From contig NZ_KB910969.1 of the NCBI RefSeq assembly GCF_000383235.1, forward strand, positions 1 to 32,319: DNA of 32,319 nt, in the 5' to 3' direction. Under the pieces are notes generated by a model. The model had not been told where the DNA came from. It was given only the letters and a program-made list of their open reading frames with translations, and did no database searches. The first letter of the stretch is position 1; every line of letters begins with the position of its first letter. Below, one piece after another: positions 321-17,903 of the stretch. A program made the translations under genes and the position numbers. The stretch comes from Bacillus sp. 123MFChir2. GTDB lineage: Bacteria; Bacillota; Bacilli; Bacillales; Bacillaceae_G.

Positions 321-455
321 GTATTCACCTCCAAGAGTTTTTCAATATATATTAAATGCAGAGTGGAATCAAAATGATATAGTTGTTTTGTGTTTTTTAA
401 AACATAATATTTAAATGTATTATAGTCATGGCAGGGAAATTTTTCTTTCTTTTTT

Positions 456-464
456 CATATACTA
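456..464 (+). promoter_or_regulatory. Possible SigmaK -10 box for the glycosyltransferase at 487
   Basis: CATATACTA fits CATANNNTA exactly, but no AC is found 16-17 bp upstream. Transcription from here would begin near 471, just ahead of the ribosome site, and would exclude the upstream in-frame start at 415. Confidence 0.25.
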
Positions 465-486
465 CAAGATGAGAGGAGGAAGGGAT

Positions 487-1581
487 TTGGTAAACGAAAA
501 TATTACAATTAGCTTGTGTATGATTGTAAAAGATGAAGAACAAACAATTGCTAGATGTTTAGAATCAGTAAAAGAGGTTGTTGATGAAATCATCATTGTT
601 GATACGGGTTCAACGGATCAAACGAAAGAGATTGTTAAGGAGCATACTCCTTATATTTATGATTTTGAATGGATTGATGATTTTGCTGCTGCTCGAAATT
701 TTTCGTTTTCTAAAGCAACAAAGGACTATATTTTGTGGTTAGACGCGGATGATATTTTAATGGAAACAGAAAAGGATAAGTTGTTACAGCTGAAAGAAAA
801 CTTGGATCCTAATGTAGATGCAGTTTCGATGTCGTATTATCTTGCGATTGATGAAAAGGGGAAGCCTACTTACAGTTCTGTCCGAAACCGCTTAGTTAAG
901 CGGATACAGAACTTCCAGTGGATTGGATTCGTACATGAATATTTAGCTGTTTATGGGAACATTATGAAAAGTGATATAGCGATTATGCATAAAAAAGAAA
1001 AAGAACATACAGATCGTAATCTTCGAATTTTTGAGAACTCACTTCGGGAAGGAAGAACTTTCACACCAAGGGATATCGTATATTATGCCAATGAATGCTT
1101 TGATCATAACAAGTATGAAAAAGCAATTGAATTATATAAACAGTTTTTAGATGGAAAAGAAGGCTGGATAGAAGATTGTATACATGCATGTGGGAAATTA
1201 GCAGATTGCTATAAGCAACTGCAAAAATCGGAAGAAGCGCTGCAAGCATGTTTTCATTCTTTTCAATACGACATTCCAAGAGGCGAAATTTGTTGTCGTA
1301 TAGGTCACATATTTATGGGAAAAGAAGATTATAAACAAGCGACCTTTTGGTACGAGATGGCAATCAATGTTCCATTTCAAAATTCCACCAGATTTATAGA
1401 TTATGCATCTTATACATGGATTCCTCATTTGCAGCTATGCGTTTGTTATAGTAGATTAGGGGATAATGAGAAAGCGAATTATCATAATGAACAAGCGGCA
1501 GTATATGTACCGGATCACGCTTCGGTGAAATATAACCAAGAATATTTTCGAAATTTATTGAAAGAAGATACGCAAAAATAA
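487..1581 (+). CDS. GT2-family glycosyltransferase with C-terminal TPR-like repeats
   Basis: The N-terminal GT-A fold carries SLCMIVKDEEQTIARCLES, then VDTGSTDQTKEI and the nucleotide-sugar/metal motif LWLDADD. Together these are typical of GT2 enzymes of the SunS-like, TPR-containing type. The C-terminal half has helical repeats (YANECFDHNKYEKAIELYKQFL and similar), which probably bind the protein acceptor. I place the start at TTG 487, because AGGAGGAAGG lies at 474-483; the reading frame itself is open from 415 without a ribosome site there. The gene diverges from a collagen-like exosporium gene, so the inferred role is adding sugar to that or a related protein in the mother cell. Donor sugar and acceptor are not known from sequence. 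Confidence 0.85.
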   Translation: MVNENITISLCMIVKDEEQTIARCLESVKEVVDEIIIVDTGSTDQTKEIVKEHTPYIYDFEWIDDFAAARNFSFSKATKDYILWLDADDILMETEKDKLLQLKENLDPNVDAVSMSYYLAIDEKGKPTYSSVRNRLVKRIQNFQWIGFVHEYLAVYGNIMKSDIAIMHKKEKEHTDRNLRIFENSLREGRTFTPRDIVYYANECFDHNKYEKAIELYKQFLDGKEGWIEDCIHACGKLADCYKQLQKSEEALQACFHSFQYDIPRGEICCRIGHIFMGKEDYKQATFWYEMAINVPFQNSTRFIDYASYTWIPHLQLCVCYSRLGDNEKANYHNEQAAVYVPDHASVKYNQEYFRNLLKEDTQK

Positions 1582-2445: not shown

Positions 2446-3717
2446 TTATTGATAAAACTTTGAGTTGTTTTTAACAGGTATAGCTACATCTGCCGGTAAT
2501 TGATCGAGCTTAGCTTCAAGACATTTCTGAGCAGCGCGGCCTAACTTGCGTTTACTTTCATTATAATAAGCGCATATGGAAATTTCATAATCAAAAAGAT
2601 AATCATAGACGTGATAATCTACAAATAGAATATCGTCTTTCGGAAAAGGGATTTCTTTCCCTTGTAATGCATACATCAAACTGACGTTGTTTTTAGATTT
2701 ATATCGGTATAGTTTTGCAAGGTGGTATAAAGGTTCAGCCCTGCTAGGTCTGTATTCCCAGGAGTTTTGAAGATAAATAGTCGTAAGAGCAAAAAACTGT
2801 TCTTCCTGGTCAACGAGGTTAGCTATTATGGATTGATCAAGAATTGATTTCTCTTTTATGGATTCTTGGATTAGTTGTTCGCGCTTAAAAGAACATTGAT
2901 CAGCTAAGCGTTCGTAACAGAGACCTATTTTTAATAAGGAGTAAAATACTTCTTCTTCCCATCCACCAGCATCCACTCTTTTTTTATACCAGATGATGGC
3001 TTCTTCTAATTCATTGAGAATAGATAATGTTTGTGCTAAGTAAAACATGTATCTAATTTTTAAATGGATTGGTGTTGTTTGATTATTAATCCCTTCTAAA
3101 AGTAAACGTTTATCCCGTTCAAATTTATCACTTCTACTGCCGCCATCTGCTTGATCATAGATAATTAAACTATCGAGCTTTCCAGTTGTATAAGAGGAAG
3201 CCCCTTGATTAGCCCCTAATTTAGAGTAATCTATATCCCAATATTCATGTGTAACTCCAACAGATGCCCATGGTAAAGATGTCTTGAGTAGGCGACTCAG
3301 CCAATATTTGATGTTGCTATCATATTGCATAGTAAGGTAATGATCCCTATTTAAGGTACACTTATCGAAGTGAGACTGAACCTCTAAGATCATATCGGCA
3401 TCAAGTAGCAATAAATAATCAGCTTCTGGATACGCTTCTTGAGCTAACTTTACAGCTAAAGTTCGATTATATCCAAAGTTTCTAAAAGGTTCATGATGCA
3501 CGGTACCGGGTATGTTACGTTCTCTGCACCAATTTTTAATGATTTCTGGTGTGTTATCAGTCGAACCTGTATCACAAATCGAAACAAAATCAATGATTGA
3601 TTTAGCAGAATCTAAACATCTTTCTATAATTTTTGATTCATTTTTGACAATCATACAAAGGCATATTTTCTTTTCCGATTTTTTGTATTGAGGTGTTTTT
3701 GAGATGTCTCTGGCCAT
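2446..3717 (-). CDS. GT2-family glycosyltransferase with helical C-terminal repeats
   Basis: The protein has 423 residues. The GT-A domain shows ICLCMIVKNESKIIERCLDS, CDTGSTDNTPEIIKNW and the DxD-type motif LLLLDADMILE near residues 100-110. A long helical region follows with TPR-like spacing (IWYKKRVDAGGWEEEVFYSLLKI and PLYHLAKLYRY, among others). The same architecture occurs in the gene at 487-1581, but the two differ clearly in sequence and length, so they are not a recent duplication. The ATG follows GAGGGGAG. A perfect SigmaK promoter match lies 100 bp upstream, which places expression in the late mother cell. The inferred role is glycosylation of an exosporium or coat protein; donor and acceptor are unknown. 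Confidence 0.85.
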   Translation of the reverse strand: MARDISKTPQYKKSEKKICLCMIVKNESKIIERCLDSAKSIIDFVSICDTGSTDNTPEIIKNWCRERNIPGTVHHEPFRNFGYNRTLAVKLAQEAYPEADYLLLLDADMILEVQSHFDKCTLNRDHYLTMQYDSNIKYWLSRLLKTSLPWASVGVTHEYWDIDYSKLGANQGASSYTTGKLDSLIIYDQADGGSRSDKFERDKRLLLEGINNQTTPIHLKIRYMFYLAQTLSILNELEEAIIWYKKRVDAGGWEEEVFYSLLKIGLCYERLADQCSFKREQLIQESIKEKSILDQSIIANLVDQEEQFFALTTIYLQNSWEYRPSRAEPLYHLAKLYRYKSKNNVSLMYALQGKEIPFPKDDILFVDYHVYDYLFDYEISICAYYNESKRKLGRAAQKCLEAKLDQLPADVAIPVKNNSKFYQ

Positions 3718-4060: not shown

Positions 4061-4203
4061 TTTGACATTCATAAATTATGAGGTGTAACAACTGTTTTTT
4101 CTTAACTGAGAGAAAGAACCTCTTTAAATTTTAACGAAAAAAATAATTTTTGAGAGAAATGGTAATAAGAAGTAATTATTGATGAGCTTATAACCCTATG
4201 GTG

Positions 4204-4231
4204 ACAAAGTGCGTATCATTCACATAAATTG
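4204..4231 (+). promoter_or_regulatory. Candidate SigmaK promoter of the rmlA-rmlB locus
   Basis: AC at 4204, 17 bp, then CATAAATTG at 4223 (one mismatch to CATANNNTA). It lies in the block most strongly conserved between the two duplicate leaders. In block B the -35 equivalent reads GC instead of AC. The untranslated leader would be about 180 nt. Confidence 0.4.
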
Positions 4232-4418
4232 TAACAACATTAATTTGATTGAGAACGTTATGAAATGAGTAATGGCTAGGAAGGGGAGTATGTAGAAAAT
4301 GAGCGGATATGATCTGTTTATTTTGATATGAAATTTAAAGACGAAATAAATTGCATTTGGATGTATCATTTGTCAGAAGTTATAAAGGCATTTAGCCTTC
4401 AAAGAAGGAGAGAGGAAA

Positions 4419-5165
4419 TTGAAAGGAATTATATTGGCTGGAGGGACAGGATCAAGATTATACCCGATTACAAAAGTTACAAATAAACATTTGCTTCCTG
4501 TTGGTCGGTATCCTATGATTTTTCATGCTGTTTGTAAATTAAAACAATGTAATATTACTGATATTATGATTGTGACAGGAAAAGAAGCCATTGGAGATAT
4601 AGTGAAATTTTTAGGAAGTGGTGCAGAATTTGAAGTAGGACTTACTTATAAGGTGCAAGAAAAGGCTGGTGGAATTGCGCAGGCGCTAGGGATGTGTAAA
4701 GATTTTGTTGCTAAAGATCATATGGTTGTCATATTAGCAGATAATGTTTTTTCTGATAATATTAAAGGCTATGTAGAAAAATTTCAGCAACAAAAACAAG
4801 GAGCAAAGATCTTATTAAAAAAAGTGGATAATCCATCACGCTTTGGTGTGCCTATTATACAGAATGGTCGAATCATTAAAATTGAAGAAAAACCAGAGCA
4901 TCCGCAAAGTTCCTATGCAGTAACGGGAATTTATATGTATGATTCGAATGTATTTCCGCTGATTGAAAAATTAAACCCTTCAGAAAGAGGAGAGTTAGAA
5001 GTTACAGATTTAAATAATTGTTATCTAGAGAAAGGACTCCTCACATATGATATTATGGCAGGTTGGTGGACTGATGCAGGGACACATACCTCTCTTCATC
5101 AAGCGAATATATTAGCACAAGACGTGAATTATACGGAAGAAGAAAATACAAGTATGAGACAGTGA
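4419..5165 (+). CDS. rmlA: Glucose-1-phosphate thymidylyltransferase (RmlA)
   Basis: It makes dTDP-glucose from glucose-1-phosphate and dTTP, the first step to dTDP-deoxysugars. Residues 7-18 (AGGTGSRLYPIT) and K23/P27 form the nucleotidyltransferase signature. LADNVF corresponds to the LGDNIF metal and sugar loop, and KIEEKPEHP plus VTGIYMYD follow in the usual order. At 248 residues it is the short form common in Bacillus. The start is TTG 4419 behind AAGGAGAGAGG. rmlB lies 250 bp downstream, separated by a bcr1-like repeat. Without rmlC and rmlD in the locus, the dTDP-glucose is probably used for a 4-amino sugar rather than rhamnose. Confidence 0.93.
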   Translation: MKGIILAGGTGSRLYPITKVTNKHLLPVGRYPMIFHAVCKLKQCNITDIMIVTGKEAIGDIVKFLGSGAEFEVGLTYKVQEKAGGIAQALGMCKDFVAKDHMVVILADNVFSDNIKGYVEKFQQQKQGAKILLKKVDNPSRFGVPIIQNGRIIKIEEKPEHPQSSYAVTGIYMYDSNVFPLIEKLNPSERGELEVTDLNNCYLEKGLLTYDIMAGWWTDAGTHTSLHQANILAQDVNYTEEENTSMRQ

Positions 5166-5209
5166 TTGACAGTTATCACTTTTGAAAATTACATGTAATA
5201 TATAGATGC

Positions 5210-5396
5210 AAATTGAAAAACTAACATAAAAACCCTTTTCTTTTTCGGTGGGCGAGAGCAACTGGCCATGCATAGAATCGGTCAGGGCCTATTTTTGCCA
5301 CATGCGCTGAGAAAACCAAAAAGAGCAAACAAGTGCAGGTTCCTTTTTTCATAGTAGCAATCTATATGTAAAAAAAATAAATTGGATTTATATATA
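5210..5396 (+). repeat. bcr1-like repeat, copy a
   Basis: It begins near AAATTGAAAAACTAACATAA, has the core GTGGGCGAGAGCAACTGGCC followed by GAATCGGTCAGGGCC, and ends in an AT-rich tract. The same layout recurs at 8481, 13240, 20900, 23085 and 24747, always in this orientation. The B. cereus-group bcr1 element (about 155 bp) is the best match from memory. Here it splits rmlA from rmlB. Confidence 0.75.
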
Positions 5397-5418
5397 ACAT
5401 GATTTAGGAGAGAGATAG

Positions 5419-6378
5419 ATGAATATTTTAGTAACTGGAGGAGCGGGGTTTATCGGAAGTAACTTTGTTCGTTACATGATAAGGAAATATCCTAATTACA
5501 ACATTATTAATTATGATGCCTTAACTTATTCTGGAAATTTAAATAATCTACGTAATATAGAAGCTGAGCGAAATTATACATTTATAAAAGGAGAAATTCA
5601 AAATAGAGATCTAATAGAGCAAGTCATTTATAAATATGAAATTGATGCTGTTATTAATTTTGCAGCAGAATCTCATGTGGATCGAAGTATAAATAATCCT
5701 ATTTTATTTTATGATACGAATGTTTTAGGAGTATCGGTATTACTTGAAGCGATAAGAAAATATAATGATATAAAGTTTGTGCAAATTTCTACAGATGAAG
5801 TATACGGTTCATTAGGAAACGAGGGGATTTTTACAGAAAATACGCCTTTATCTCCGAGTAGCCCGTACGCTTCTAGCAAGGCTAGTGCAGACTTAATTGT
5901 ATTGTCATATTTTAAAACATATGGTTCTCATATTAATATTACACGTTGTTCAAATAATTATGGTCCATATCAACATCCAGAAAAATTAATTCCTCTTATG
6001 ATTACAAATGCATTAGAAGAGAAAAAATCACCTTTATATGGAGATGGTAGGAATATACGGGACTGGTTGCATGTATATGATCATTGTACAGCAATAGACT
6101 TAGTTTTGCATAAAGGAAAAAGTGGCGAAATTTATAATATTGGTGGTAATAACGAAAAGAAAAATATAGAGGTTATAAAGAAGATTCTTCATAAACTAAG
6201 GAAATCAGAGAGACTAATTTACTTTGTTCAAGATAGATTGGGGCATGATTGGCGTTATGCAATCGATGCTAATAAAATAACAACAGAACTAGGCTGGAAA
6301 CCAACTTATACATTTGAAGAAGGATTAGAAGAAACGATTCAATGGTATATGGATCATGAGAATTGGTGGAAATCATAA
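5419..6378 (+). CDS. rmlB: dTDP-glucose 4,6-dehydratase (RmlB)
   Basis: It converts dTDP-glucose to dTDP-4-keto-6-deoxyglucose. The extended short-chain dehydrogenase layout is complete: NAD-binding GGAGFIGS at residues 7-14, STDEVYG at 124-130 with the T-D-E catalytic triplet typical of RmlB, and Y150-x3-K154. NNYGPYQ, GDGRNIRDWLHVYDH and the C-terminal DRLGHDWRYAID follow as in RmlB. At 319 residues it has normal length. The ATG follows AGGAGAGAGAT. The next gene is a 4-keto-sugar aminotransferase that would use its product. A 30-residue relic of a second copy survives at 9566-9663. Confidence 0.95.
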   Translation: MNILVTGGAGFIGSNFVRYMIRKYPNYNIINYDALTYSGNLNNLRNIEAERNYTFIKGEIQNRDLIEQVIYKYEIDAVINFAAESHVDRSINNPILFYDTNVLGVSVLLEAIRKYNDIKFVQISTDEVYGSLGNEGIFTENTPLSPSSPYASSKASADLIVLSYFKTYGSHINITRCSNNYGPYQHPEKLIPLMITNALEEKKSPLYGDGRNIRDWLHVYDHCTAIDLVLHKGKSGEIYNIGGNNEKKNIEVIKKILHKLRKSERLIYFVQDRLGHDWRYAIDANKITTELGWKPTYTFEEGLEETIQWYMDHENWWKS

Positions 6379-6460
6379 AAAAATAGATGATGATAAGCTG
6401 TTAGTATATTTTTGATTTGTAGGGTTAAGTATTAGGGAAGAATTAAGCTCTTCTTAATAA

Positions 6461-7645
6461 TTGAATTCACACCTTATTTGGGATCATTCCAATTCAGAAA
6501 GGAGGCTGAACGTTATCGAAATCAAAAAATTTTCTAAACCTATTTACGTCGCTTCTCCCTTCCTCCCTCCTTTTCAAGAATTCTCCAACTTAATAGAACA
6601 AATCTGGGAAAATCGATATTTAACAAACAACGGATTACTACATCAAAAATTTGAAATGGAATTAAGGAAATATTTAGGTGCTGAAAAGAATACACTATTT
6701 GTGAATGGGCATATGGCACTTGATATTGCAATTAAATCTTTACAGTTAACAGGAGAGGTGATTACAACACCTTTTACATTTGCCTCAACGACTCACGCCA
6801 TTTCTATGAATGGATTAACCCCGGTATTTTGTGATGTAAATAAACATGATTATAATTTAGACGCTTCGAAAATTGAATCGTTAGTCACTGAACATACATC
6901 AGCAATTATACCCGTACATGTTTTTGGAACCCCTTGTGATGTTTATGAAATTGAAAGAATAGCAAAAAAGTATAATTTAAAAGTTATATATGATTCAGCC
7001 CATGCTTTTGGTGTAAAAGTAGATGGCAAAGGAATTGGCATATTCGGCGATATATCTATGTTTAGTATGCATGCAACAAAAGTGTTCCATTCTATTGAAG
7101 GGGGAATACTTACTTATCATGATGAGAAATTATATGAAATATTAAATCAGTATAAAAATTTTGGAATTCAAAGCTCGGAGGACGTTAGTTTAATTGGCCT
7201 AAATGCTAAAATGAATGAATTTCAAGCGGCGATGGGTATTGTGAATCTCCAGTATATAAGAGAAGAAATGAACAAAAGAAAAAAAATAACAAATATTTAT
7301 CGTGATAAATTAAAAAGTATTCCAGGTATTCGCTTTATAGAGGAAATGGAGAACGTTCAATATAATTATTCGTATTTTTTTATAGAGATTGATGAAGCGA
7401 GCTATGGATTAGATCGTAATCAATTATATGAACGTTTAATGTCGTATAACGTATTTACAAGGAAATATTTTTCTCCATTAACGAGCGATTTTATATGTTA
7501 TAAAGATCAATTTGATTCGTGGAAAACACCAATTGCGAAAGGGATAGCTAATACAATTTTGGTGTTACCATTATACGGAGAATTGCAAGTTGAAGAAGTA
7601 GAGAGAATTTGTATGATGATTAAAATGATTCCTGAAAAAGTGTAA
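6461..7645 (+). CDS. VioA-like dTDP-4-keto-6-deoxyhexose aminotransferase (DegT/DnrJ/EryC1 family)
   Basis: This PLP-dependent sugar aminotransferase probably makes dTDP-4-amino-4,6-dideoxyglucose from the RmlB product. Visible motifs, numbered from 6461, are LTNNGLLHQKFE near 54, ITTPFTFASTTHA near 101, IPVHVFGTPCD near 150, D178-x2-H181 in YDSAHAFG, and the PLP lysine K207 in MHATKVFHSIEGG. The start is uncertain. TTG 6461 has no clear ribosome site, while a strong AAAGGAGG at 6498-6505 is followed in frame by GTT ATC at 6512-6517, neither an ordinary start codon. A single G to T change from GTG at 6512 would explain this. Sugar position (C4 or C3) is inferred from resemblance to VioA/FdtB, not proven. 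A broken duplicate lies at 9679-10857. Confidence 0.88.
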   Translation: MNSHLIWDHSNSERRLNVIEIKKFSKPIYVASPFLPPFQEFSNLIEQIWENRYLTNNGLLHQKFEMELRKYLGAEKNTLFVNGHMALDIAIKSLQLTGEVITTPFTFASTTHAISMNGLTPVFCDVNKHDYNLDASKIESLVTEHTSAIIPVHVFGTPCDVYEIERIAKKYNLKVIYDSAHAFGVKVDGKGIGIFGDISMFSMHATKVFHSIEGGILTYHDEKLYEILNQYKNFGIQSSEDVSLIGLNAKMNEFQAAMGIVNLQYIREEMNKRKKITNIYRDKLKSIPGIRFIEEMENVQYNYSYFFIEIDEASYGLDRNQLYERLMSYNVFTRKYFSPLTSDFICYKDQFDSWKTPIAKGIANTILVLPLYGELQVEEVERICMMIKMIPEKV

Positions 7646-7694
7646 TTTGAGTATCTAGAGAAAAGCTTAAATATGAAAACCTCTTTAGGAGGGG

Positions 7695-8471
7695 ATGGTG
7701 ATTGTGAGCGATTTACATGCGATTAAACAAACAGAGAAGGTAATGAGCAATGAATCTTTGCCACCAAAAGTGAATGTTATTATTCCAGCTTACAATATGA
7801 AAGATTATTTAAAAGAAACTGTCGATAGTGTTTTACGTCAAGATTATCCCAATTTAGAAATCATTGTTGCTGACGACTGTTCAACTGATGGCACACAAGA
7901 AATGATGAAACAGTATGACCAGAATCCGAAAGTTAAGTATATTCGAAATGAAGTAAACTTAGGTTCCAGGATGAATGGTCAAAAATTACTGCATGAACAT
8001 GCGGATAGTAAGTATATATTAGGTATTAATCATGATGATTACCTTACGCAAGATAATTACATTAGCAAGGCTGTATCTTTATTTGAAGAAAATCCAAATG
8101 TTTCACTTGTTTTTGCGAATTTATATTTTTTAAATGTTAGTTTAGGGGAGTTAAGTCCTATCACTCAAGATATACCCAAAATCACAAATGGAATTGATTA
8201 TTTTTTAAACTATCAATCTGATAGATATCCGCACATTACAAGTGTTTTGACATCTGTTTATAGGAGAGAAGATGCTATTCGAATGGGGTGTTTTCTTAGA
8301 AAAATCAGAATGCCAGGACTTATTTTTGTATTTCAAATTAATGTTAATTGGCGATTTGAAATAATGTGGTTTAATAATTAAAAAAGTAATGCATTACAAT
8401 TGTTGACGAGTATTTCAGAAAGTTATCCTCTTGCATTTAATTGGATTACGAATCGTTTACATTGGCAATGA
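7695..8471 (+). pseudogene. GT2 glycosyltransferase pseudogene (block A copy)
   Basis: The first 190 or so codons match the intact duplicate at 10910-11875, including NVIIPAYNMKDYLKETVDSV, DDCSTDGTQEMM and INHDDYL. Compared with that copy it has one extra base near 8285-8297, which shifts the frame. It then has a deletion of about 199 bp, apparently between two short AATTGG/AACTGG matches, which restores the frame, and finally CAA changed to TAA at 8379-8381. The rest, to the old stop at 8469-8471, still aligns. The frame is open to 8381 and would give a 228-residue protein without the acceptor half, probably inactive. Confidence 0.9.
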
Positions 8472-8480
8472 ATGTATCAA

Positions 8481-8567
8481 AAAAGGAATGTAGCAGGTTA
8501 TTTTTTGTTCAGCATGGCGGTGAATTGTGTGTTGGAAAGTCAAGTTGGATCTATATATATAAATGTC
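8481..8567 (+). repeat. bcr1-like repeat, 3' half only (copy b)
   Basis: It contains GCAGGTTATTTTTTGTTC, AGCATGGCGGTGAATTGTGT, GTTGGAAAGTCAAGTTGGAT and an AT-rich end, which matches the right half of the other copies. The GGGCGAGAG half is absent. It abuts the end of duplication block A. Confidence 0.6.
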
Positions 8568-8623
8568 AATTCAACTGTGAAATATGTTAATTATCTTTAG
8601 TGACATATGAGGAAGTGAAGAAC

Positions 8624-9280
8624 GTGAAGAAAATTGTTGTTTTTGGTTCAGGAGGTCATGCTAAGGTTGTTATTGATGTTATTCGACGAGCTGGAGATTA
8701 TGAGATTTATGGAATAGTTGACGGCTTTCGTTCACAAAATGAAATGGTTTACGGTTGTGAAGTAATAGGTGATGAATCCAGTCTATTCCCTATTAAAGAT
8801 CATATCCATGGGGGAATTGTAGCTGTAGGCGATAATTGGATAAGAAGAAAGATAGTGGAGAAAGTAAAGGCTATTATTCCAGATTTTTTGTTTATTTGTG
8901 CTATTCATCCATTCGCTATTATTAGTGCAGATGTAATCATTAGAGAAGGAACGGTAGTAGCGGGCGGAGCTGTAATTAATAGTAATGTGCGGATAGGAGA
9001 ACACTGCATTGTTAATACAAATTCTAGTATAGATCATGACTGTGTAATTGATAATTATGCGACTATCGCACCAGGTGTTACTTTGGGAGGGAACGTTAAG
9101 ATTGGGGATTATTCTGTTGTTTCTTTAGGAGCAAATGTAATTCATTCCATTACAATAGGAGAGCATACTGTAATTGGTGCCGGTGCGACAGTTGTAAAAG
9201 ATATCGGCTCTTATGTACTTGCGGTTGGCGTACCAGCAACAAAAATAAAATCTAGAGAGAAGGGAGATAAATATCTGTAA
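8624..9280 (+). CDS. NeuD/PglD-like sugar N- or O-acyltransferase
   Basis: This 218-residue protein has an N-terminal nucleotide-sugar-binding Rossmann-like part (IVVFGSGGHAKVVIDVIRR) and a C-terminal left-handed beta-helix of hexapeptide repeats (for example VRIGEHCIVNTNSSIDHD and VKIGDYSVVSLGANV). SSIDHDCVI carries the histidine used as general base in PglD-type enzymes. The family acylates UDP- or dTDP-4-amino sugars. Next to rmlA, rmlB and a VioA-like aminotransferase, the natural inference is N-acylation of dTDP-4-amino-4,6-dideoxyhexose, comparable to VioB. The start is GTG 8624, 6-8 nt after GAGGAAGTG; an in-frame GTG at 8600 lacks a ribosome site. The hairpin at 9312 probably ends transcription. 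Confidence 0.87.
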   Translation: MKKIVVFGSGGHAKVVIDVIRRAGDYEIYGIVDGFRSQNEMVYGCEVIGDESSLFPIKDHIHGGIVAVGDNWIRRKIVEKVKAIIPDFLFICAIHPFAIISADVIIREGTVVAGGAVINSNVRIGEHCIVNTNSSIDHDCVIDNYATIAPGVTLGGNVKIGDYSVVSLGANVIHSITIGEHTVIGAGATVVKDIGSYVLAVGVPATKIKSREKGDKYL

Positions 9281-9311
9281 GTTCATAGAAAAAGTCAGAC
9301 TATTCGCTGGG

Positions 9312-9347
9312 AATCATCAATTTTATTTAGTAGATTGGTGATTTTTA
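9312..9347 (+). terminator. Terminator after the acyltransferase gene
   Basis: AATCATCAAT and ATTGGTGATT form a hairpin (one T-G pair) followed by a T-rich run, 32 bp after the acyltransferase stop. It is homologous to the orphan hairpin at 4021. The region from here to 9565 is the degenerate leader of block B and contains no gene. Confidence 0.7.
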
Positions 9348-9565
9348 CTTTTTAAAGCTTTCGTCATAATTGTTTGTTCTTACTGTGAGAAAATTTTTAA
9401 AATTAAATGGAAAAATAATTGTTAAGGAACATGGTAAGTGACTATATATGAGTCATGACCTTGTTGTGGCAAAACATATATAGTTCACATAAATTGTAAC
9501 AACATTACTTTTAGTGAAAACGGTATTTAGGAGTTAGTGGTTGTGTGATAAGAGGACGTCATAAT

Positions 9566-9663
9566 GATCGTACATTAAATTATTCCAAAAACCTAAATAT
9601 TTTACTTAATGTAGAATTAGAGCGAAATTACATATGTATAAAAGGGAGAATTGATAATAGTGG
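9566..9663 (+). pseudogene. rmlB: rmlB relic (about 32 codons) in block B
   Basis: In the frame GAT CGT ACA at 9566 the translation aligns with residues 33-64 of the intact RmlB. Shared residues include NL, ERNY and IKG (relic LERNYICIKGRIDN, intact AERNYTFIKGEIQN). No start and no catalytic residues remain. Everything upstream (rmlA) and downstream in rmlB has been deleted. Confidence 0.75.
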
Positions 9664-9678
9664 TGGCATAGAGCTATT

Positions 9679-10857
9679 ATGAATGAGCGTTCAAATTATG
9701 AAAGGAGGCTGAATGTTATCGAAATTAAAAAGTTCTCTAAACCCATTTATGTTACTTCCCCTTTTCTTCCTCCTTTTCAAGAATTTTCTCGTTTAATAGA
9801 ACAAATTTGGGATAATCGATATTTAACAAACAATGGACCGCTGCATCAACAATTCGAAATGGAATGAAGGAAATATTTAGGTGTTGAAAAGAATACACTA
9901 TTTGTAAATGGGCATATGGCACTTGATATCGCAATTAAATCTTTGCAATTAACAGGAGAGATGATTACAACACCTTTTACATTTGCCTCGACAACCCACG
10001 CTATTTCCATGAATGGATTAACTCCAGTATTTTGTGCTGTAAATAAACATGATTATAATTTAGACGTTTCAAAAATTGAATCGTTAATTACTGAACATAC
10101 TTCGGCAATTATACCCGTACATGTTTTTGGCACCCCTTGCGATATTTATGAAATTGAAAGATTAGCAAAAAAATATAAATTAAAAATTATATATGATGCA
10201 GCCCGTGCTTTTGGTGTGAAAATAGATGGAAAAGGAATTAGCTTATTTGGCGATATATCTATGTTTAGTATGCATGCCACAAAAATTTTTCATTCTATTG
10301 AAGGTGGAATGCTTACTTATTATGATGAAACATTATCTGGGGTATTAAATCAGTATGAAAATTTTGGATATAAAAGTTCGGGAGAGGTTAGCTTAGTCGG
10401 TTTAAATGCGAAAATGAATGAATTTCAAGCAGCGATGGGTATTTTGAATATCCGACATATAAGGGAAGAAATGAATAGAAGAAAAGAAATAACGAATATT
10501 TATCGTAATCAATTAAAAAACATTCCAGCTATTCGCTTTATAGAAGAAATGAAAAACGTCCAATATAATTATTCGTATTTTTCCATAGAGATCGATGGAG
10601 CGATCTATGGATTAGATCGTAACTAATTATATGAACATTTAATGTCGTATAACGTATTTACAAGGAAATATTTTTCGCCATTAACAAGTAATTTTAGCTG
10701 TTATAAAGATCAATATGACTCAGGGAAAATACCAGTTGCAAAAGAGATAGCAAATAAAGTTTTAGTATTGCCACTATACGGTGAATTACAAGTTGGAGAT
10801 GTGGAAAAAATTTGTATGATGATTAAAACAATCCCAGAACTAGTTGAATTGGAATAG
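9679..10857 (+). pseudogene. Sugar aminotransferase pseudogene (block B copy)
   Basis: This is a second copy of the gene at 6461-7645, colinear over its whole length. Two nonsense changes break it: TTA to TGA at 9865-9867 and CAA to TAA at 10624-10626. The PLP-lysine region HATKIFHSIEGG survives, but the D-x2-H motif reads YDAARAFG, with the histidine changed to arginine. FCDVNK has become FCAVNK. The ribosome site AAAGGAGG is kept, followed in frame by the same abnormal GTT ATC. The piece 9916-10626 could be read from an internal ATG but would lack the N-terminal region, so function is unlikely. Confidence 0.93.
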
Positions 10858-10909
10858 GAGAAGAATTAGGAGCAAGTAAGAAAAAATTCTTTAGGAAGGG
10901 ATCGTGATT

Positions 10910-11875
10910 ATGAGCAATTTAGACAGTAACAAACAAACAGATAAGGAAATAAACCATGACATTTTTCCGCCAAAAGTAAATGTTATTATTGCAGCCTACA
11001 ATATGAAAGAGTATTTAAAAGAAACTGTCGATAGTGTTTTACGTCAAGATTATCCCAATTTAGAAATTATTGTGGCTGATGACTGTTCAACTGATGGTAC
11101 ACAAGAAATGATGAAACGGTATGAGGGGAATCCGAAAGTTAAATATATTCGAAATGAAGTAAATTTAGGTTCGAGGGTGAATGGTCGAAAATTACTGCAT
11201 GAGCATGCAGATGGTAAATATATATTATGTATTAATCATGATGATTACCTTACACAGAATAATTATATTAGTAGGGCTGTAGCTTTACTTGAAGAAAATC
11301 CAAATGTTTCGCTTGTTTTTGCGAATTTATATTTTTTGGATGTTGATTCAGGAGACTTAAGACCAATTACACAAGATATACCTACGATTACAAAAGGTAT
11401 TGATTACTTTTTAAACTATGAAACTGGTAGTTATCCTCATATAACAAGTATATTAACATCGGTATTTAGAAGAGAAGACGCTATTCGCATGCGCTGCTTC
11501 ATGGAAAAATCAGAATGCCAAGATCTATTTTTGTATTTAAAATTAATGCTAATTGGTGACATTGGGTTTATTACAGATCATGTCGGTGTGTATCGTTTTC
11601 ATAAAAATAGTTTAAGTTTTAACATGCCAACTAAGGGTGATTACGGAACGATTGAAGATCTTGAAGAATTATATGTTTATGCATTAGAGCTAGGGTTAGA
11701 TAAAAGTCAATTAGCTGAGTGGTTAACTATACGAGTGTATAAATATGTGAACTGGCGCTTTGAAATAATGTGGTTCAATAATCAAAAAAGTAGTGCATTA
11801 CAATTGCTTACGAGTATTTCAGAAAAGCATCCTCTTGTATTTTATTGGATTACAAATCGTCTACATTGGGAATAG
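10910..11875 (+). CDS. GT2-family glycosyltransferase (intact block B copy)
   Basis: This is a 321-residue GT-A enzyme. It has KVNVIIAAYNMKEYLKETVD near 25, DDCSTDGTQEMMKR, the metal/nucleotide loop CINHDDYLTQ, and an acceptor domain ending in YVNWRFEIMWFNNQ. The start is ATG 10910, 9 nt after AGGAAGGG; GTG 10904 is too close. It follows the broken aminotransferase by 50 bp and precedes the CgeB-like gene by about 70 bp. Its duplicate in block A is destroyed, so this is the only working copy. The likely role is transfer of the deoxyamino sugar made by the block A enzymes. Acceptor unknown; spore-surface collagen-like proteins are the obvious candidates. Confidence 0.9.
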   Translation: MSNLDSNKQTDKEINHDIFPPKVNVIIAAYNMKEYLKETVDSVLRQDYPNLEIIVADDCSTDGTQEMMKRYEGNPKVKYIRNEVNLGSRVNGRKLLHEHADGKYILCINHDDYLTQNNYISRAVALLEENPNVSLVFANLYFLDVDSGDLRPITQDIPTITKGIDYFLNYETGSYPHITSILTSVFRREDAIRMRCFMEKSECQDLFLYLKLMLIGDIGFITDHVGVYRFHKNSLSFNMPTKGDYGTIEDLEELYVYALELGLDKSQLAEWLTIRVYKYVNWRFEIMWFNNQKSSALQLLTSISEKHPLVFYWITNRLHWE

Positions 11876-11948
11876 AAGTATCATGCATAAATTTTAAGGG
11901 GAGAAAGTGCAATGTATATGAAAAATAGATATGAGGTGGAGATAATAA

Positions 11949-12884
11949 GTGGAAAAAATAAACTTATTATTAATTATTAGAAACTACAGTAAGTGGATTC
12001 ACACGGCACCTTTTTATCTTCAAGAAGAACTGTCAAAAACCACAAACTTATTTGTGTGGAATGAAGATGGCGACATTTCTAATATCCTTAATACTATTCG
12101 TTTTAATCCTGATTTTATATTAATCTACTTATTTGATACAGAGGCGAATGCTCCAAAAATTACAGGACTTCGTAATTTAAAAATTCCATATGGAATATAT
12201 ATAGAAGACTTACATCACAATCCTGCTAAAACATACGCTGCAATAATACATGAAAACGTTGAGCATATATTTACATGTTATAGAGATGCTTTTCATAAAT
12301 TTTATCCTGACTTTTCTGATAAAATCAGATGGTTTCCTCATCATATCAATACTGAAATTTTTAAGGACTATGGCCAAACAAAAGACATTGATATGCTATT
12401 AATGGGAGCAGTTATTCCTTATTATTATCCTCTAAGATGTAAAATCCTTGAAACTTATAAAAATGAAGCTAATTTTGTCTATCATGGACATCCGGGCTAT
12501 AGGAATATTGATGATGGAGAATTTCAAAATGTATTTGTTCGCGAAAGTTATGCCAAAGAAATAAATAGAGCAAAATTATTTTTTACTTGTAATTCGATAT
12601 ATGGATATACAATCTTAAAATATTTTGAAGTACTTGCATGTAACACGTTATTACTTGCTCCAAGCTCAGACGAAATTTTAGATTTAGGTTTAAAGCCAGG
12701 GGTGCATTTTGTGGAAATAAATGAAACTAATTTTATGGAAAAGGCAAATTATTATTTAACACATGACGAAGAACGAGAAGAAATTAGTAAGAATGGATTT
12801 GAACTTGTACAAGAAAAGCATTCAACTACTCAACGGGCTCAACAACTTAAAGAGATGATTCATGAAATATTAAAAGGAGGATGA
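11949..12884 (+). CDS. CgeB-like glycosyltransferase
   Basis: This 311-residue protein resembles the CgeB/DUF3880 type of GT-B glycosyltransferase. The central part reads GIYIEDLHHNPAKT and IFTCYRDAFHKF, then WFPHHINTEIFKDYG, MLLMGAVIPYYYPLR, and the C-terminal donor region YTILKYFEVLACNTLLLAP followed by GLKPGVHFVEI. The last part is the usual E-x-x-A donor-site neighbourhood. CgeB in B. subtilis contributes to the polysaccharide or glycoprotein surface of the mature spore. The start is GTG 11949 after GAGGTGGAG. It is probably the last intact gene of the locus. No transmembrane segment or signal peptide is seen, so it acts in the mother-cell cytoplasm. Confidence 0.82.
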   Translation: MEKINLLLIIRNYSKWIHTAPFYLQEELSKTTNLFVWNEDGDISNILNTIRFNPDFILIYLFDTEANAPKITGLRNLKIPYGIYIEDLHHNPAKTYAAIIHENVEHIFTCYRDAFHKFYPDFSDKIRWFPHHINTEIFKDYGQTKDIDMLLMGAVIPYYYPLRCKILETYKNEANFVYHGHPGYRNIDDGEFQNVFVRESYAKEINRAKLFFTCNSIYGYTILKYFEVLACNTLLLAPSSDEILDLGLKPGVHFVEINETNFMEKANYYLTHDEEREEISKNGFELVQEKHSTTQRAQQLKEMIHEILKGG

Positions 12885-12888
12885 CCAT

Positions 12889-13228
12889 TTGAAGGCTTTA
12901 GTTACAGGCGGAGCAGGCTTTATTGGTTCACACATTGTCTCCACATTGTTGGAAAACAATGTGGCACATGCTAATTTTTTAGCTCTCACGAATGCAGACA
13001 ATCAAATCTGTAATATTAGTTCGAATCAACAAATTTCAGTCAATGAATTACTGGATGTAATCTGTAATGAAAATAGAAGATAAGAGAATATATAAAGAAG
13101 AAAGACCAGGAGATATTGTTCATAGTTATTTATTAAATGATCATGCAAGGAAAAACTTAATGTGGCAACCAAAATTTTCATTGTTTCAAGGATTAGGAGA
13201 AACGATTTCCTTTTTCAAGAAAGTATAA
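12889..13228 (+). pseudogene. GalE-like NAD-dependent epimerase pseudogene
   Basis: The start MKALVTGGAGFIGSHIVSTL is a normal epimerase N-terminus with the NAD-binding glycine motif. After residue 24 (LLENN) it jumps to the C-terminal region (VAHANFLALTNADNQICNIS), so some 200 codons including the catalytic Y-x3-K are deleted. The frame stops at 13081-13083, but after a frameshift near 13060 the usual tail ERPGDIVHSYLL, WQPKFSLFQGLGETISFFKK continues to TAA at 13226-13228. It begins 4 nt after the CgeB-like gene with SD AAAGGAGG, so it was once part of the same operon. Confidence 0.9.
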
Positions 13229-13595: not shown

Positions 13596-14486
<891 letters not shown>

Positions 14487-15428: not shown

Positions 15429-16361
15429 TTAGTTTCCTGGTGTTTCGCCAGGCGGCGTGATATCGGTTATAGCCGAAATATGACAAGTCGATAGAACTCT
15501 GACATCACCGTCATTTGTTATTCTGATTAAACCTTCAACTATATTGGCTGCAGTTGGAATAACGACATTAAAGTTTTGTAAATTTTGAAAGTTACTAGAA
15601 CCTTCTGTTTGGAAGTCTGCAGTAGTACCTGCTACTCCTAAAAACGATTCCAGCATAGCTCTTGTCGGTTGTTCACAGCAAGCGCAGAATCCTGTGTCAG
15701 CTTCAACTATTGGCTGAGGAAGTGGTACTGCTAGTAGCGGATTTGGTGAAGAATTAGAGCCTAATCCAGCAATTTTACAAATAGGTATCGCTGCATCTCC
15801 ACCATTAATAACTAAAACGTTACCCATTACCGCGCTAAGTGTTGCATTGTTTATTGCCCCCGCAACGCTTTGTTGTGTAGTTGCGACTGTAATATTATTT
15901 ACAGCACCAGCAGCAATAAGATCTTCTAAAAATTGTCTCATCGGCTCTACGCAGCAATCACACTCAGTATCAACGGCCGGCCCAGTTGGTCCAGTCGGTC
16001 CAGTTGGTCCAGTTGGTCCAGTCGGCCCAGTTGGTCCAGTCGGTCCAGTTGGTCCAGTCGGTCCAGTTGGTCCAGTCGGTCCAGTCGGCCCAGTTGGTCC
16101 AGTCGGTCCAGTTGGTCCAGTCGGCCCAGTTGGTCCAGTCGGTCCAGTTGGTCCAGTCGGTCCAGTTGGTCCAGTCGGTCCAGTCGGCCCAGTTGGTCCA
16201 GTCGGTCCAGTTGGTCCAGTCGGTCCAGTTGGTCCAGTCGGCCCAGTTGGTCCAGTCGGCCCAGTTGGTCCAGTCGGCCCAGTTGGTCCAGTTGGGCATG
16301 GGCATGGTACAGGGAATGCACACTGAATCGGTATGCACCTCTTGTTATTAGAATTACCCAA
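15429..16361 (-). CDS. Collagen-like spore-surface protein with duplicated Cys motif
   Basis: The protein has 310 residues. The leader [19 protein letters not shown] is shared with the gene at 13596-14465. It is followed by PCPCPT and 34 uninterrupted GPT triplets (15984-16289). The C-terminal part contains two copies of a C-x-C-C-x2-P-x-R-x2-L-E motif, [15 protein letters not shown] and [15 protein letters not shown], about 90 residues apart. The second half reads [20 protein letters not shown] near the end. The start is TTG 16361-16359 with AAGGAGG upstream and an exact SigmaK promoter at 16403-16430. By family knowledge it is a fibrous spore-surface protein. The Cys motifs suggest disulfide cross-linking to the Cys-rich coat or exosporium, but this is inference. 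Confidence 0.9.
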
Positions 16362-16706: not shown

Positions 16707-17273
16707 ATGGCTGGTAAACAAATAAAGAAAGCGAAAAATAAACCGTTATTATATATTCAACATTTGGATTTATATAAGCTTCAGCATGTGCAGCGGAGTG
16801 TAATTGTGAAACAGACAGAGAAAATTACGAAAACAAAGGCGAATGAAATAGATCATAATGAAAATGATGAACCTATTCTAGAAGAGATAAACAGGGGTGA
16901 GCAATATAACGAGAAAACGGACATAGAAGAAGGAAATGAGCCAAATCAAAGTGATGAACAAGAGCAAAGTGATGAACAAGAGCAAAGTGATGAACAAGAG
17001 CAAAACGACGAGCAATATGCAGAATCTGCAAGCAACACATGGCAGAATAAAGCATTTGGAGATATGAATAATGAAGAGAAAATATATTTCTTGTTAAATC
17101 GACCGCATTATATACCAGGTGTGAAATGTATAGTGAAAACAGAAAAAGCTTCTTATGTAGGAGTTATTTCTTCTTATGAAAACGGGGTGTTTCAAATGGT
17201 GGTACCAAATCAAATTGGAAATTTTAGTTTAGGTATAGAAGAGGTCATGTCGATTCGCATAATGGGGTTATAA
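16707..17273 (+). CDS. cotO: CotO-family spore coat morphogenetic protein
   Basis: The protein has 188 residues. The N-terminus is basic (AGKQIKKAKNKPLLYIQHLD), as in CotO. The middle is acidic and Glu/Gln-rich with SDEQEQ repeated three times (18-bp unit, 16949-17002) plus a variant NDEQ copy. The C-terminal 75 residues carry the conserved domain: FGDMNNEEKIYFLLNRPHYI, PGVKCIV, YVGVISSYENGVFQMVV and EVMSIRIMGL. CotO works in assembly of coat and exosporium in Bacillus. The gene lies beside a CotY-family gene, as cotO does in B. subtilis. ATG 16707 follows AAGGAGGATTAG. The repeat tract may vary in length between strains. Confidence 0.85.
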   Translation: MAGKQIKKAKNKPLLYIQHLDLYKLQHVQRSVIVKQTEKITKTKANEIDHNENDEPILEEINRGEQYNEKTDIEEGNEPNQSDEQEQSDEQEQSDEQEQNDEQYAESASNTWQNKAFGDMNNEEKIYFLLNRPHYIPGVKCIVKTEKASYVGVISSYENGVFQMVVPNQIGNFSLGIEEVMSIRIMGL

Positions 17274-17327: not shown

Positions 17328-17777
17328 TTATACGCCTGCAACGTGTACATCGCGTAAGCATTGAATTGCACAGAAACAATTTAAGTCAACAGTTATAACA
17401 GAATTTGTTGCTTGTAGTGTAGCAGTAGGGGTATTTAAGAAGTAACAAATTGGATTTTGATCATGTGGTACGTTTTGTACTTCTAATCCACGTAATACTG
17501 CACAGCAATCGTCTACACTTTCTACGCGAAGAACCAACGTAGTACAATCTGTAGTATTAGTAGAAGGAATAAATACTTTTAATGGATCTGCTTCACTAGT
17601 AAATAATATAAATGGGCGCGTATTTGCGAGTCTCGATCCTTGGTGTGCACCTAGAAATGGAACATCGCAACCTGTTGGGCATGTGCTTGTTGCACAATCT
17701 TGTAATTCATTGATGAAGTTTACAACATCACATACGCAATTGATGTGCATACTCTTTTTATCATCATTGTTACCCAT
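17328..17777 (-). CDS. CotY/ExsY (CotZ-family) cysteine-rich exosporium/coat protein
   Basis: The protein has 149 residues, 12 of them cysteine. Landmarks are CVCDVVNFINELQDC, TGCDVPFLGAH, ANTRPFILFT, LRVESVDDCCAVLRGL, and the C-terminal ITVDLNCFCAIQCLRDV, all typical of the CotY/ExsY family. These proteins self-assemble into the disulfide-bonded crystalline basal layer of the exosporium. It differs from the classical ExsY and CotY I know: the MSCN start is replaced by MGNNDDKK, and one loop is shorter. It is therefore better treated as a divergent paralogue. ATG 17777-17775 is chosen because AAGGAG lies 9 nt upstream; the in-frame GTG three codons earlier overlaps that site. The neighbours cotO and yjcA match B. 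subtilis order. Confidence 0.9.
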   Translation of the reverse strand: MGNNDDKKSMHINCVCDVVNFINELQDCATSTCPTGCDVPFLGAHQGSRLANTRPFILFTSEADPLKVFIPSTNTTDCTTLVLRVESVDDCCAVLRGLEVQNVPHDQNPICYFLNTPTATLQATNSVITVDLNCFCAIQCLRDVHVAGV

Positions 17778-17903
17778 TCTTTTCACTCCTTATCATAAGT
17801 TTTGATTACACTAATAGAATATTGAATGCGAGGTAAATCTGTTACTGCTCTCAAGTTGTTTTTTTCAAAGGATAAGCCTGTATTTATCTGAAAAGAAAAG
17901 GGG

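What the first reader, a model, noticed from the sequence alone, without database searches (positions are those of the whole stretch)
4419..12884. Candidate spore glycosylation system for an anthrose/viosamine-like sugar
rmlA and rmlB are present without rmlC or rmlD, followed by a VioA-like aminotransferase, a GT2 enzyme, a NeuD/PglD-like acyltransferase and a CgeB-like transferase, all lying between collagen-like exosporium genes. RmlA, RmlB, VioA and VioB chemistry would give an N-acylated dTDP-4-amino-4,6-dideoxyglucose. Anthrose on BclA is a related sugar, but that pathway is encoded by a different operon with other genes. The sugar and its acceptor here may be undescribed.
Basis: partly seen in the sequence, partly recalled or inferred. 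Interest (0 to 1): 0.72.

Follow-up and report, generated by a model that had tools for sequence, protein, structure and literature searches.

The report
Anthrose-like sugar genes for spore surface
A Bacillus pseudomycoides-like bacterium carries, between its spore-surface genes, a set of enzymes predicted to make an anthrose-like amino sugar and likely to attach it to spore proteins, with a sugar-transferring enzyme whose relatives examined in other bacteria lie close to flagellin genes.

Summary
The genes are real and mostly as described. RmlA, RmlB, a VioA-clade aminotransferase (AT) and a VioB/PerB-type N-acyltransferase would make an N-acylated dTDP-4-amino-4,6-dideoxyglucose (N-acyl-viosamine, the sugar class of anthrose). 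The set lies between a BxpB homologue and two collagen-like genes plus CotO- and CotY/ExsY-type genes, so it is very likely for the exosporium.

Corrections: the cluster is two diverged copies of one operon, each partly broken. Only the first AT and the second GT2 are intact. The left flank is bxpB, not a collagen-like gene. The lack of rmlC/rmlD is only shown for the window: relatives with the AT or GT2 also encode RmlD, in two strains apparently on the same contig, so rhamnose is probably made as well.

New: all 7 close GT2 homologues examined outside the B. cereus group (6 if two identical ones count once) lie near flagellin; 6 of 7 have a VioA-type AT and 6 of 7 RmlA and RmlB nearby. None of 5 distant homologues does. 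The best reading is a flagellin-type viosamine glycosylation module recruited to the exosporium locus. Acyl group, linkage and acceptor are untested. I rate it a new variant of a known kind.

The parts
415..1581 (+). GT2 glycosyltransferase with TPR; candidate initiating transferase
   Evidence: PF00535 + TPR; 30-37% to GT2-TPR proteins next to flagellin in L130 and L131
1691..2197 (-). BxpB/ExsF homologue (exosporium basal layer)
   Evidence: PDB 7r1m, 8d02 'BxpB', 9h3d 'ExsF'
2446..3717 (-). GT2-like glycosyltransferase
   Evidence: PF00535; SigK-like site 110 nt upstream
4204..4230 (+). SigK-like site, 189 nt before rmlA
   Evidence: AC-N17-CATANNNT; one of 18 matches in the window against 16.2 in shuffles, so weak alone
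4419..5165 (+). rmlA, glucose-1-phosphate thymidylyltransferase, short form
   Evidence: best PDB 3hl3/4ecm, E 7e-120; PF00483
5419..6378 (+). rmlB, dTDP-glucose 4,6-dehydratase
   Evidence: TIGR01181 above cutoff; PDB 6bi4; TDE at 125 and YASSK at 150
6461..7645 (+). VioA-type sugar 4-aminotransferase, intact copy (start uncertain; AGGAGG at 6500)
   Evidence: PF01041; K207 aligned with the lysine of 2po3; tree
7695..8381 (+). GT2, first copy, broken (lacks an internal stretch present in the second copy)
8600..9280 (+). NeuD/PglD/VioB-family N-acyltransferase
   Evidence: TIGR03570 above cutoff; best PDB perosamine N-acetyltransferase 4ea7, also VioB 7txp; H146
9312..9353 (+). palindrome, copy of 4022-4063: start of second unit
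   Evidence: repeat D7
9455..9526 (+). copy of the promoter region 4190-4261
   Evidence: repeat D4, 76%; no SigK-pattern match
9562..9674 (+). rmlB fragment in the second unit
   Evidence: 73% over 113 bases to rmlB
9679..10857 (+). aminotransferase, second copy, pseudogene
   Evidence: two in-frame stops; 83% to copy 1, 89% to P0006
10904..11875 (+). GT2, second copy, intact: candidate N-acyl-viosaminyl transferase
   Evidence: PF00535; examined close homologues in flagellar clusters
11949..12884 (+). PF13524 (Glyco_trans_1_2) glycosyltransferase
   Evidence: 43-46% to proteins on Priestia megaterium plasmids, beside several spore-coat genes on two of three fetched
12889..13226 (+). remnant of an NAD-dependent epimerase/dehydratase
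   Evidence: PF01370 E 2e-6 on 64 aa; a stretch further on, as requested, held 4 stops
13596..14465 (-). collagen-like protein, 29 GPT triplets; candidate acceptor
   Evidence: PF01391; SigK-like site 41 nt upstream; GPT count
15429..16361 (-). collagen-like protein, 34 GPT triplets; candidate acceptor
   Evidence: PF01391; SigK-like site 43 nt upstream; GPT count
16707..17273 (+). CotO-type spore coat protein
   Evidence: PF14153 109 bits, cutoff 35
17328..17786 (-). CotY/ExsY-type exosporium protein
   Evidence: PF10612 Spore-coat_CotZ 109 bits

Best explanation
The cluster encodes RmlA, RmlB, a VioA-clade aminotransferase and a VioB/PerB-type acyltransferase, which together would turn glucose-1-phosphate into an N-acylated dTDP-4-amino-4,6-dideoxyglucose (dTDP-N-acyl-viosamine), and an intact GT2 gene whose product likely transfers this sugar to a spore-surface glycoprotein, probably the collagen-like proteins encoded next to it. 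Predicted steps: RmlA makes dTDP-glucose, RmlB makes the 4-keto-6-deoxy form, the AT adds the 4-amino group, and the acyltransferase caps it. The GT2 would then add it as a terminal residue, perhaps on rhamnose, as VioT does on flagellin of Pseudomonas syringae and as anthrose sits on rhamnose in BclA. Shown: the gene set, the family and clade placements, the spore-surface neighbours, the partly broken duplication that leaves one intact AT and one intact GT2, and the flagellar location of the GT2's close homologues that were examined. Inferred: sugar stereochemistry, acyl group, donor of the GT2, acceptor, and expression in sporulation. My reading of the history is that a viosamine flagellin-glycosylation module was recruited into the exosporium locus.
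For: AT: in a clade of DesI, E. coli and B. glumae VioA and Bacillota relatives (100/99), apart from QdtB, WecE and ArnB; 59 of 5,426 E. coli genomes match part of its DNA, and 24 of the 40 rows shown are annotated vioA. Acyltransferase: TIGR03570 above cutoff; H146 aligns with the His that is N or A in 4eaa and 4eab. Gene order: E. coli O123 and O121 have rfbB, rfbA, AT and an acyltransferase with no rfbC/rfbD in the stretch shown; O39 has rfbBDAC, vioA and acyltransferase. Location: BxpB, two collagen-like genes, CotO and CotY/ExsY around it; in B. thuringiensis HD73 bclA, exsY, bxpB and cotY are numbered HD73_1438, 1449, 1452 and 1453 (PMC4750369, passages). GT2: 7 of 7 close homologues examined are near flagellin, against 0 of 5 distant ones examined; AT and GT2 relatives share a contig length in 5 cases. 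Retention: exactly one AT and one GT2 reading frame remain whole. Rhamnose: RmlD on a contig of the same length as that of the AT or GT2 in two relatives.
Against: No genome is held for the window, and none of the 80 loci returned was named as B. cereus group, so context in its relatives was not seen. The GT2 relatives closest outside the group by sequence (Paenibacillus P0132-P0134, 54-58%) were not seen in context; the seven examined are about 41-51% identical, two were found through the AT, and L131 and L132 have identical GT2s, so they are fewer than seven independent cases. L133 has a different DegT enzyme, a KAS III and another hexapeptide transferase, so this GT2 family may accept other amino sugars. 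A NeuD-type gene lies within 10 kb of the AT in only 5 of 80 relative loci, RmlA plus RmlB in 33 of 80, and 8 of those 33 also have RmlC and RmlD (some loci end early). Raw identity of the AT to QdtB (33%) is no lower than to DesI (31%), though bits favour DesI (226 against 151), and the tree has long branches. The SigK-like pattern is not enriched over the window (18 against 16.2 in shuffles) and does not hit bxpB or cotY. The collagen-like N-termini do not show the BclA anchor motif as I recall it. Partial decay could mean that the locus is on its way out.
Confidence: 0.6

Rival explanations
1. The cluster makes anthrose itself, or serves an anthrose pathway whose other genes lie elsewhere, with the methyl and 3-hydroxy-3-methylbutyryl groups added by enzymes outside the window.
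For: Anthrose is a 2-O-methyl N-acyl-4-amino-4,6-dideoxyglucose on rhamnose (PMC6222408, start of abstract); RmlD is present in relatives.
Against: The known pathway is a separate antABCD operon (PMC10050317, passages). No methyltransferase family was matched by the window proteins scanned.
Confidence: 0.12
2. The sugar is made for flagellin or a vegetative polysaccharide, and the exosporium neighbours are incidental.
For: The examined close homologues of the GT2 lie near flagellin.
Against: No flagellar family among the window proteins scanned and no tblastn match to a flagellin in the window; spore-surface genes lie on both sides and a SigK-like site precedes rmlA.
Confidence: 0.12
3. The locus is a decaying relic and makes no finished sugar.
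For: Two broken genes and two gene remnants.
Against: One whole reading frame for every step remains; near-identical AT and GT2 proteins occur in other isolates (99% P0002, 97% P0004; 99% P0121).
Confidence: 0.1
4. The sugar is a different dTDP-aminodeoxyhexose, such as a 3-amino or a 4-amino-galacto form.
For: DegT enzymes are hard to assign by identity alone; QdtB is 33% identical.
Against: Clade placement with VioA/DesI and the NeuD/VioB partner; among NCBIfam models DesI scores 305 bits against PseC 216, LegC 176, the two WecE-type models 164 and 131, and ArnB 163, all below cutoff.
Confidence: 0.12

Closest known systems
Viosamine island of Pseudomonas syringae (vioA, vioB, vioT and others; mVio-Rha-Rha on flagellin; PMC3927599, passages)
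   Same: VioA-type aminotransferase and VioB-type acyltransferase making an N-acyl-viosamine for a protein glycan; VioT adds it to rhamnosyl glycan
   Different: Acts on flagellin; has KAS III, ACP, reductase and methyltransferase genes for a 3-hydroxybutyryl, 2-O-methyl sugar; VioT is 1,173 aa and was not compared with this GT2
Anthrose operon antABCD and BclA glycan of Bacillus anthracis (PMC10050317 and PMC7793302, passages; PMC6222408, start of abstract)
   Same: Exosporium collagen-like protein; N-acyl 4-amino-4,6-dideoxyglucose; probable rhamnose pathway in the genome
   Different: A separate four-gene operon there; here rmlA and rmlB are in one cluster with AT, a NeuD-family acyltransferase and transferases beside bxpB and collagen-like genes. 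Gene functions inside antABCD are recalled, and no direct protein comparison was made
E. coli O121, O123 and O39 O-antigen clusters
   Same: rfbB, rfbA, VioA-clade aminotransferase and an acyltransferase together
   Different: Lipopolysaccharide O-antigen with Wzx/Wzy; GNAT or another acyltransferase, with WbqC in two, in place of NeuD; O39 also has rfbC and rfbD
Flagellar glycosylation clusters of Bacillota (L032, L069, L130-L134)
   Same: Same GT2 subfamily; VioA-type AT in 6 of 7 and RmlA+RmlB in 6 of 7
   Different: Flagellar genes in place of exosporium genes; GT2 forms of 307 to 454 aa, or part of a 1,024-aa protein (L032)

Membership tests
VioA (dTDP-4-amino-4,6-dideoxyglucose aminotransferase) | DegT/DnrJ/EryC1/StrS fold with PLP lysine | tested here: met
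   PF01041 300 bits; K207 in HATK aligned to 2po3
VioA (dTDP-4-amino-4,6-dideoxyglucose aminotransferase) | Groups with VioA/DesI, not with 3-amino (QdtB) or WecE/ArnB enzymes | tested here: met
   100/99 branch; long branches noted
VioA (dTDP-4-amino-4,6-dideoxyglucose aminotransferase) | NCBIfam equivalog cutoff for DesI (TIGR04427, 650 bits) | tested here: not met
   305 bits; best-scoring NCBIfam model but below cutoff. This is the cutoff of DesI, not of VioA
VioA (dTDP-4-amino-4,6-dideoxyglucose aminotransferase) | Makes dTDP-Qui4N in vitro | not testable with these tools
   needs enzymology
NeuD/PglD/VioB sugar N-acyltransferase | TIGR03570 cutoff | tested here: met
   200.3 bits against 160.8
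NeuD/PglD/VioB sugar N-acyltransferase | Catalytic histidine | tested here: met
   H146 aligned with the PerB His that is N or A in 4eaa/4eab and with His of VioB 7txp
NeuD/PglD/VioB sugar N-acyltransferase | Acyl donor and sugar acceptor | not testable with these tools
   acyl group unknown
dTDP-rhamnose operon (rmlACBD) | rmlC and rmlD in the cluster | tested here: not met
   tblastn of E. coli RmlC and Bacillus RmlD on the window: only a weak match to rmlB; RmlD exists in relatives
Anthrose operon (antABCD) | Orthologues of AntA-AntD | not tested
   no Ant protein was available; the enzyme paper on the operon is not held
CgeB | PF13524 Glyco_trans_1_2 domain | tested here: met
   61 bits; general domain, not specific to CgeB
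CgeB | Orthology to B. subtilis CgeB | not tested
   no NCBIfam match; fold model unusable
BclA-type nap glycoprotein | Collagen-like GXX region, rich in GPT | tested here: met
   29 and 34 GPT triplets; PF01391
BclA-type nap glycoprotein | BclA amino-terminal anchor and C-terminal trimer domain | tested here: inconclusive
   only Collagen found by Pfam; N-termini compared by eye with a recalled motif

The most novel reading that the evidence does not exclude
A complete viosamine-type glycosylation module of flagellin origin (VioA, VioB-like acyltransferase and its cognate GT2) was captured by the exosporium gene island of the B. pseudomycoides lineage, which thereby acquired its own anthrose-like terminal sugar on collagen-like spore hairs by a route separate from antABCD: convergent evolution of the anthrose type of spore cap. 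The operon then doubled, and the two copies lost complementary genes.
Probability: 0.35. Interest if true: 0.72.

Novelty: new variant of a known kind. Interest (0 to 1): 0.5.

Why it matters
Anthrose is treated as a signature of one species' spores; one paper states that no other Bacillus makes it (PMC10050317, passages). A near neighbour with a locally encoded route to the same sugar class would explain possible cross-reactions of anthrose-directed reagents. It would also show how spore-surface sugars are swapped between strains, and would link flagellin and spore glycosylation through one glycosyltransferase family. It gives a short, directly testable enzyme pathway.

Tried and rejected
Own genome: not held, so presence of rmlC, rmlD, ant genes or flagellar genes elsewhere in this genome could not be tested. 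Plasmid searches for GT2 gave only distant hits, none at 60% identity or more, and the region upstream of rmlA had no plasmid match. A viral-contig scan with the GT2 gave one partial hit of no use. The single-sequence AlphaFold model of 11949-12884 is unusable (mean pLDDT 35), so no fold search was run; the PDB sequence search found no relative. RNA families: only two T-box leaders. Sigma-70 promoter-like sites in 3700-13600 were fewer than in shuffles (43 against 58) and were not used.

Considered and dropped: 'rhamnose-free glycan', because RmlD occurs in relatives; 'two functional paralogous operons', because each copy has a broken gene.
Full report
WHAT IS THERE. The window carries, from left to right, a GT2-TPR gene (415-1581), a BxpB/ExsF homologue (1691-2197, minus), a GT2-like gene (2446-3717, minus), then on the plus strand rmlA, rmlB, an aminotransferase (AT), a GT2, an acyltransferase, a second aminotransferase, a second GT2 and a PF13524 glycosyltransferase. 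These are followed by two collagen-like genes (minus), a CotO-type spore coat gene (plus), a CotY/ExsY-type gene (minus), and further right by a UvrD-type helicase, unrelated genes and trp genes after two T-box leaders. The named proteins closest to the AT and to the second GT2 come from B. pseudomycoides (97% and 99%) and from an isolate named B. thuringiensis (99% for the AT). I therefore place the window in or near B. pseudomycoides; no marker-gene tree was made.

TWO HALF-BROKEN COPIES. The region is in fact two diverged copies of one operon. 9690-11559 matches 6487-8354 at 85% over 1,871 bases. The palindrome (4022/9312) and promoter region (4190/9455) are repeated, and 113 bases of rmlB survive before the second AT. 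The second AT has two in-frame stops. The first GT2 lacks an internal stretch. What remains is one whole AT frame (first copy) and one whole GT2 frame (second copy). The copies are not recent: the ATs are 83% identical and the GT2s 75% over 214 residues. AT copy 2 is closest to P0006 of Bacillus sp. UNC322MFChir4.1 (89%), copy 1 to P0002 and P0004; GT2 copy 1 is closest to P0124 (85%), copy 2 to P0121 (99%), among the relatives compared. That exactly one of each is left suggests, but does not prove, selection for one working set.

THE SUGAR. The best NCBIfam model for the AT is TIGR04427 (DesI, 305 bits, below its cutoff of 650), against 216 for PseC, 176 for LegC, 164 and 131 for two WecE-type models and 163 for ArnB. 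The best solved structure is 2po3 (DesI by recall). A tree of 24 sequences puts the AT with DesI, annotated VioA of E. coli O39 and B. glumae, and Bacillota relatives, on a branch of 100/99 support that leaves out QdtB, 7b0d, WecE and ArnB. The root is drawn at the midpoint only, and WecE, DesI and ArnB have long branches. Raw identity alone would not decide (DesI 31%, QdtB 33%, E. coli VioA 43%, B. glumae VioA 44%). At the DNA level 59 of 5,426 E. coli genomes match at about 64-70% identity over 13-47% of the query (40 of the 59 rows shown), and 24 of the 40 rows shown are annotated vioA. The acyltransferase passes the NeuD/PglB/VioB cutoff. Its closest structures are perosamine N-acetyltransferase and, further down, VioB. 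H146 aligns with the histidine that is Asn or Ala in two deposits of the former. RmlA and RmlB are closest to 3hl3/4ecm and 6bi4. The E. coli O123 and O121 clusters show the same logic: rfbB, rfbA, AT and an acyltransferase with no rfbC or rfbD in the stretch shown. O39 has the full rfbBDAC set as well. Among the 80 AT relatives, RmlA and RmlB both lie within 10 kb in 33, with no RmlC or RmlD hit in 23 of these and with both in 8; a NeuD-type gene is near in only 5 of 80, strongly in L002 and L007 (some loci are cut short by contig ends). The straightforward product is dTDP-4-acylamino-4,6-dideoxyglucose. The acyl group cannot be read from sequence.

RHAMNOSE IS PROBABLY MADE TOO. No rmlC or rmlD was found in the window. 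But RmlD proteins are found in B. pseudomycoides (P0210, P0296), in Bacillus sp. UNC322MFChir4.1 on a contig of 247,935 bases, the same length as that holding its AT (P0219, P0006), and in Bacillus sp. 491mf on a contig of 270,610 bases, the same as that holding its GT2 (P0217, P0123) (the best 120 of 7,999 hits were listed). The same length in the same strain is taken as the same contig; the distance is unknown. So the argument from missing rmlC and rmlD holds only for this window.

THE TRANSFERASE AND FLAGELLAR CLUSTERS. AT and GT2 relatives share a contig length in five cases: B. arachidis, B. fungorum twice, B. manliponensis, and an unnamed 21.7-kb contig. Outside the B. cereus group I looked for the GT2 in two ways. 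Among the 80 AT loci, two carry a strong GT2 homologue (49%): L032 and L069. Both have flagellin; flagellin lies within 10 kb of the AT in 4 of the 80 loci in all. Profile searches with 46 GT2 sequences at E 1e-60 hit 5 of 397 genomes of one order, 41 of 392 of another and 1 of 391 of a class. Scores fall into a close group (E 5e-125 or better, six places including L069's own genome) and a distant group (41 places, about 1e-74 to 1e-88). I fetched 20-kb stretches of all five close ones not already in hand (L130-L134) and of 5 of the 41 distant ones (L135-L139); the other 36 were not fetched at that length. All five close ones have flagellin: within 8 kb of the GT2 in L130-L133, and at 10.2 kb, with FliD, in L134. 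AT is present in L130, L131, L132 and L134, and RmlA plus RmlB in L130-L133. None of the five distant ones has any of these. Together with L032 and L069, 7 of 7 examined close homologues are near flagellin, 6 of 7 with a VioA-type AT and 6 of 7 with RmlA and RmlB. Limits: L032 and L069 were found through the AT; flagellin in L132 and L134 was seen by tblastn only; the GT2s of L131 and L132 are identical; L133 has another DegT enzyme, a KAS III and another hexapeptide transferase, so this GT2 family need not always use viosamine; and the Paenibacillus proteins closer in sequence (P0132-P0134, 54-58%) were not seen in context. A GT2 tree puts the window's GT2 with B. cereus-group and Paenibacillus sequences and L134 (95/94), in a group that holds all the flagellar members and excludes the four distant ones included (100/100, long branches noted). 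The contexts of the GT2 in the other B. cereus-group species were not visible.

THE SPORE SIDE. BxpB on the left and collagen-like, CotO- and CotY/ExsY-type genes on the right mark the exosporium island. In B. thuringiensis HD73 bclA, exsY, bxpB and cotY are genes 1438, 1449, 1452 and 1453 (PMC4750369, passages). The same paper reports SigK-type promoters (CAC-N16-CATATGTTA for bclA) for such genes. The pattern AC-N15-17-CATANNNT occurs upstream of rmlA (189 nt), of both collagen-like genes (41 and 43 nt) and of 2446-3717 (110 nt), that is within 400 nt of 4 of the 15 gene starts tested. It is not enriched over the whole window (18 against 16.2 in 60 shuffles), misses bxpB and cotY, and the pattern was my choice. 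The collagen-like proteins carry 29 and 34 GPT triplets. The PF13524 transferase has 43-46% relatives on six Priestia megaterium plasmids, beside several spore-coat genes on two of the three fetched. These last points are circumstantial. No flagellar family was matched by the window proteins scanned, and flagellin found no tblastn match in the window.

COMPARISON WITH WHAT IS KNOWN. P. syringae flagellin carries modified viosamine on two rhamnoses, made by VioA, VioB and others and transferred by VioT (PMC3927599, passages). A B. glumae plasmid has an annotated vioA near flagellin, fliD, KAS III, ACP and an acetyltransferase. BclA of B. anthracis carries an anthrose-capped rhamnose oligosaccharide, with anthrose from antABCD (PMC10050317, passages; PMC6222408, start of abstract). 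The window's module looks like the first, placed where the second belongs. In the library held, papers with 'viosamine', 'Bacillus' and 'spore' number two (a giant-virus review and a Clostridium flagella paper), with 'anthrose' and 'viosamine' one, and with 'pseudomycoides' and 'exosporium' 16, of which 15 were listed. None of those listed has a title on this operon. Three papers on anthrose, cereose and BclA glycans were not held, so I do not claim that it is absent from print.

VERDICT. A real and coherent pathway, best read as an N-acyl-viosamine glycosylation module of the exosporium with a flagellar past. Sugar class fairly sure; spore use likely; acyl group, linkage and acceptor open.

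Noticed in passing
window 5215-5360, 13250-13420, 20890-21050, and a match at 23124-23151: A repeated intergenic element of about 130 bases with a conserved core (CTGGCCATG..TAG.A..GGTCA...CC), 4 matches with none in 100 shuffles; the 20.9-kb copy folds better than shuffles (z -3.0), the 5.2-kb copy does not clearly (z -1.0). Not an Rfam hit; resembles the bcr repeats of the B. cereus group by recall. One copy fills the rmlA-rmlB gap.
   Followed up: partly
window 8512-8555 and 13387-13430: Two further similar intergenic stretches (77% over 44 bases), after the broken GT2 and after the epimerase remnant; perhaps scars of the same duplication or another repeat.
   Followed up: no
L130, L131, L134 and window 415-1581: GT2 (mostly GT2-TPR) proteins related to the one at the left edge of the window recur in the flagellar clusters (30-37%); it may be the initiating transferase in both settings.
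   Followed up: partly
   Followed up: no
L002 (Sporomusa malonica) and L007 (soil MAG): Order AT - NeuD-type acyltransferase (54% and 50%) - GT2 outside Bacillales; a sign that AT and NeuD act together.
   Followed up: partly
window 26708-26946 and 26989-27224: Tandem T-box leaders before trp genes.
   Followed up: no
L087, Priestia megaterium plasmid: Close relative of the PF13524 transferase next to an acyltransferase, with galE and SDR genes near, on a plasmid that also holds a spore coat gene.
   Followed up: no
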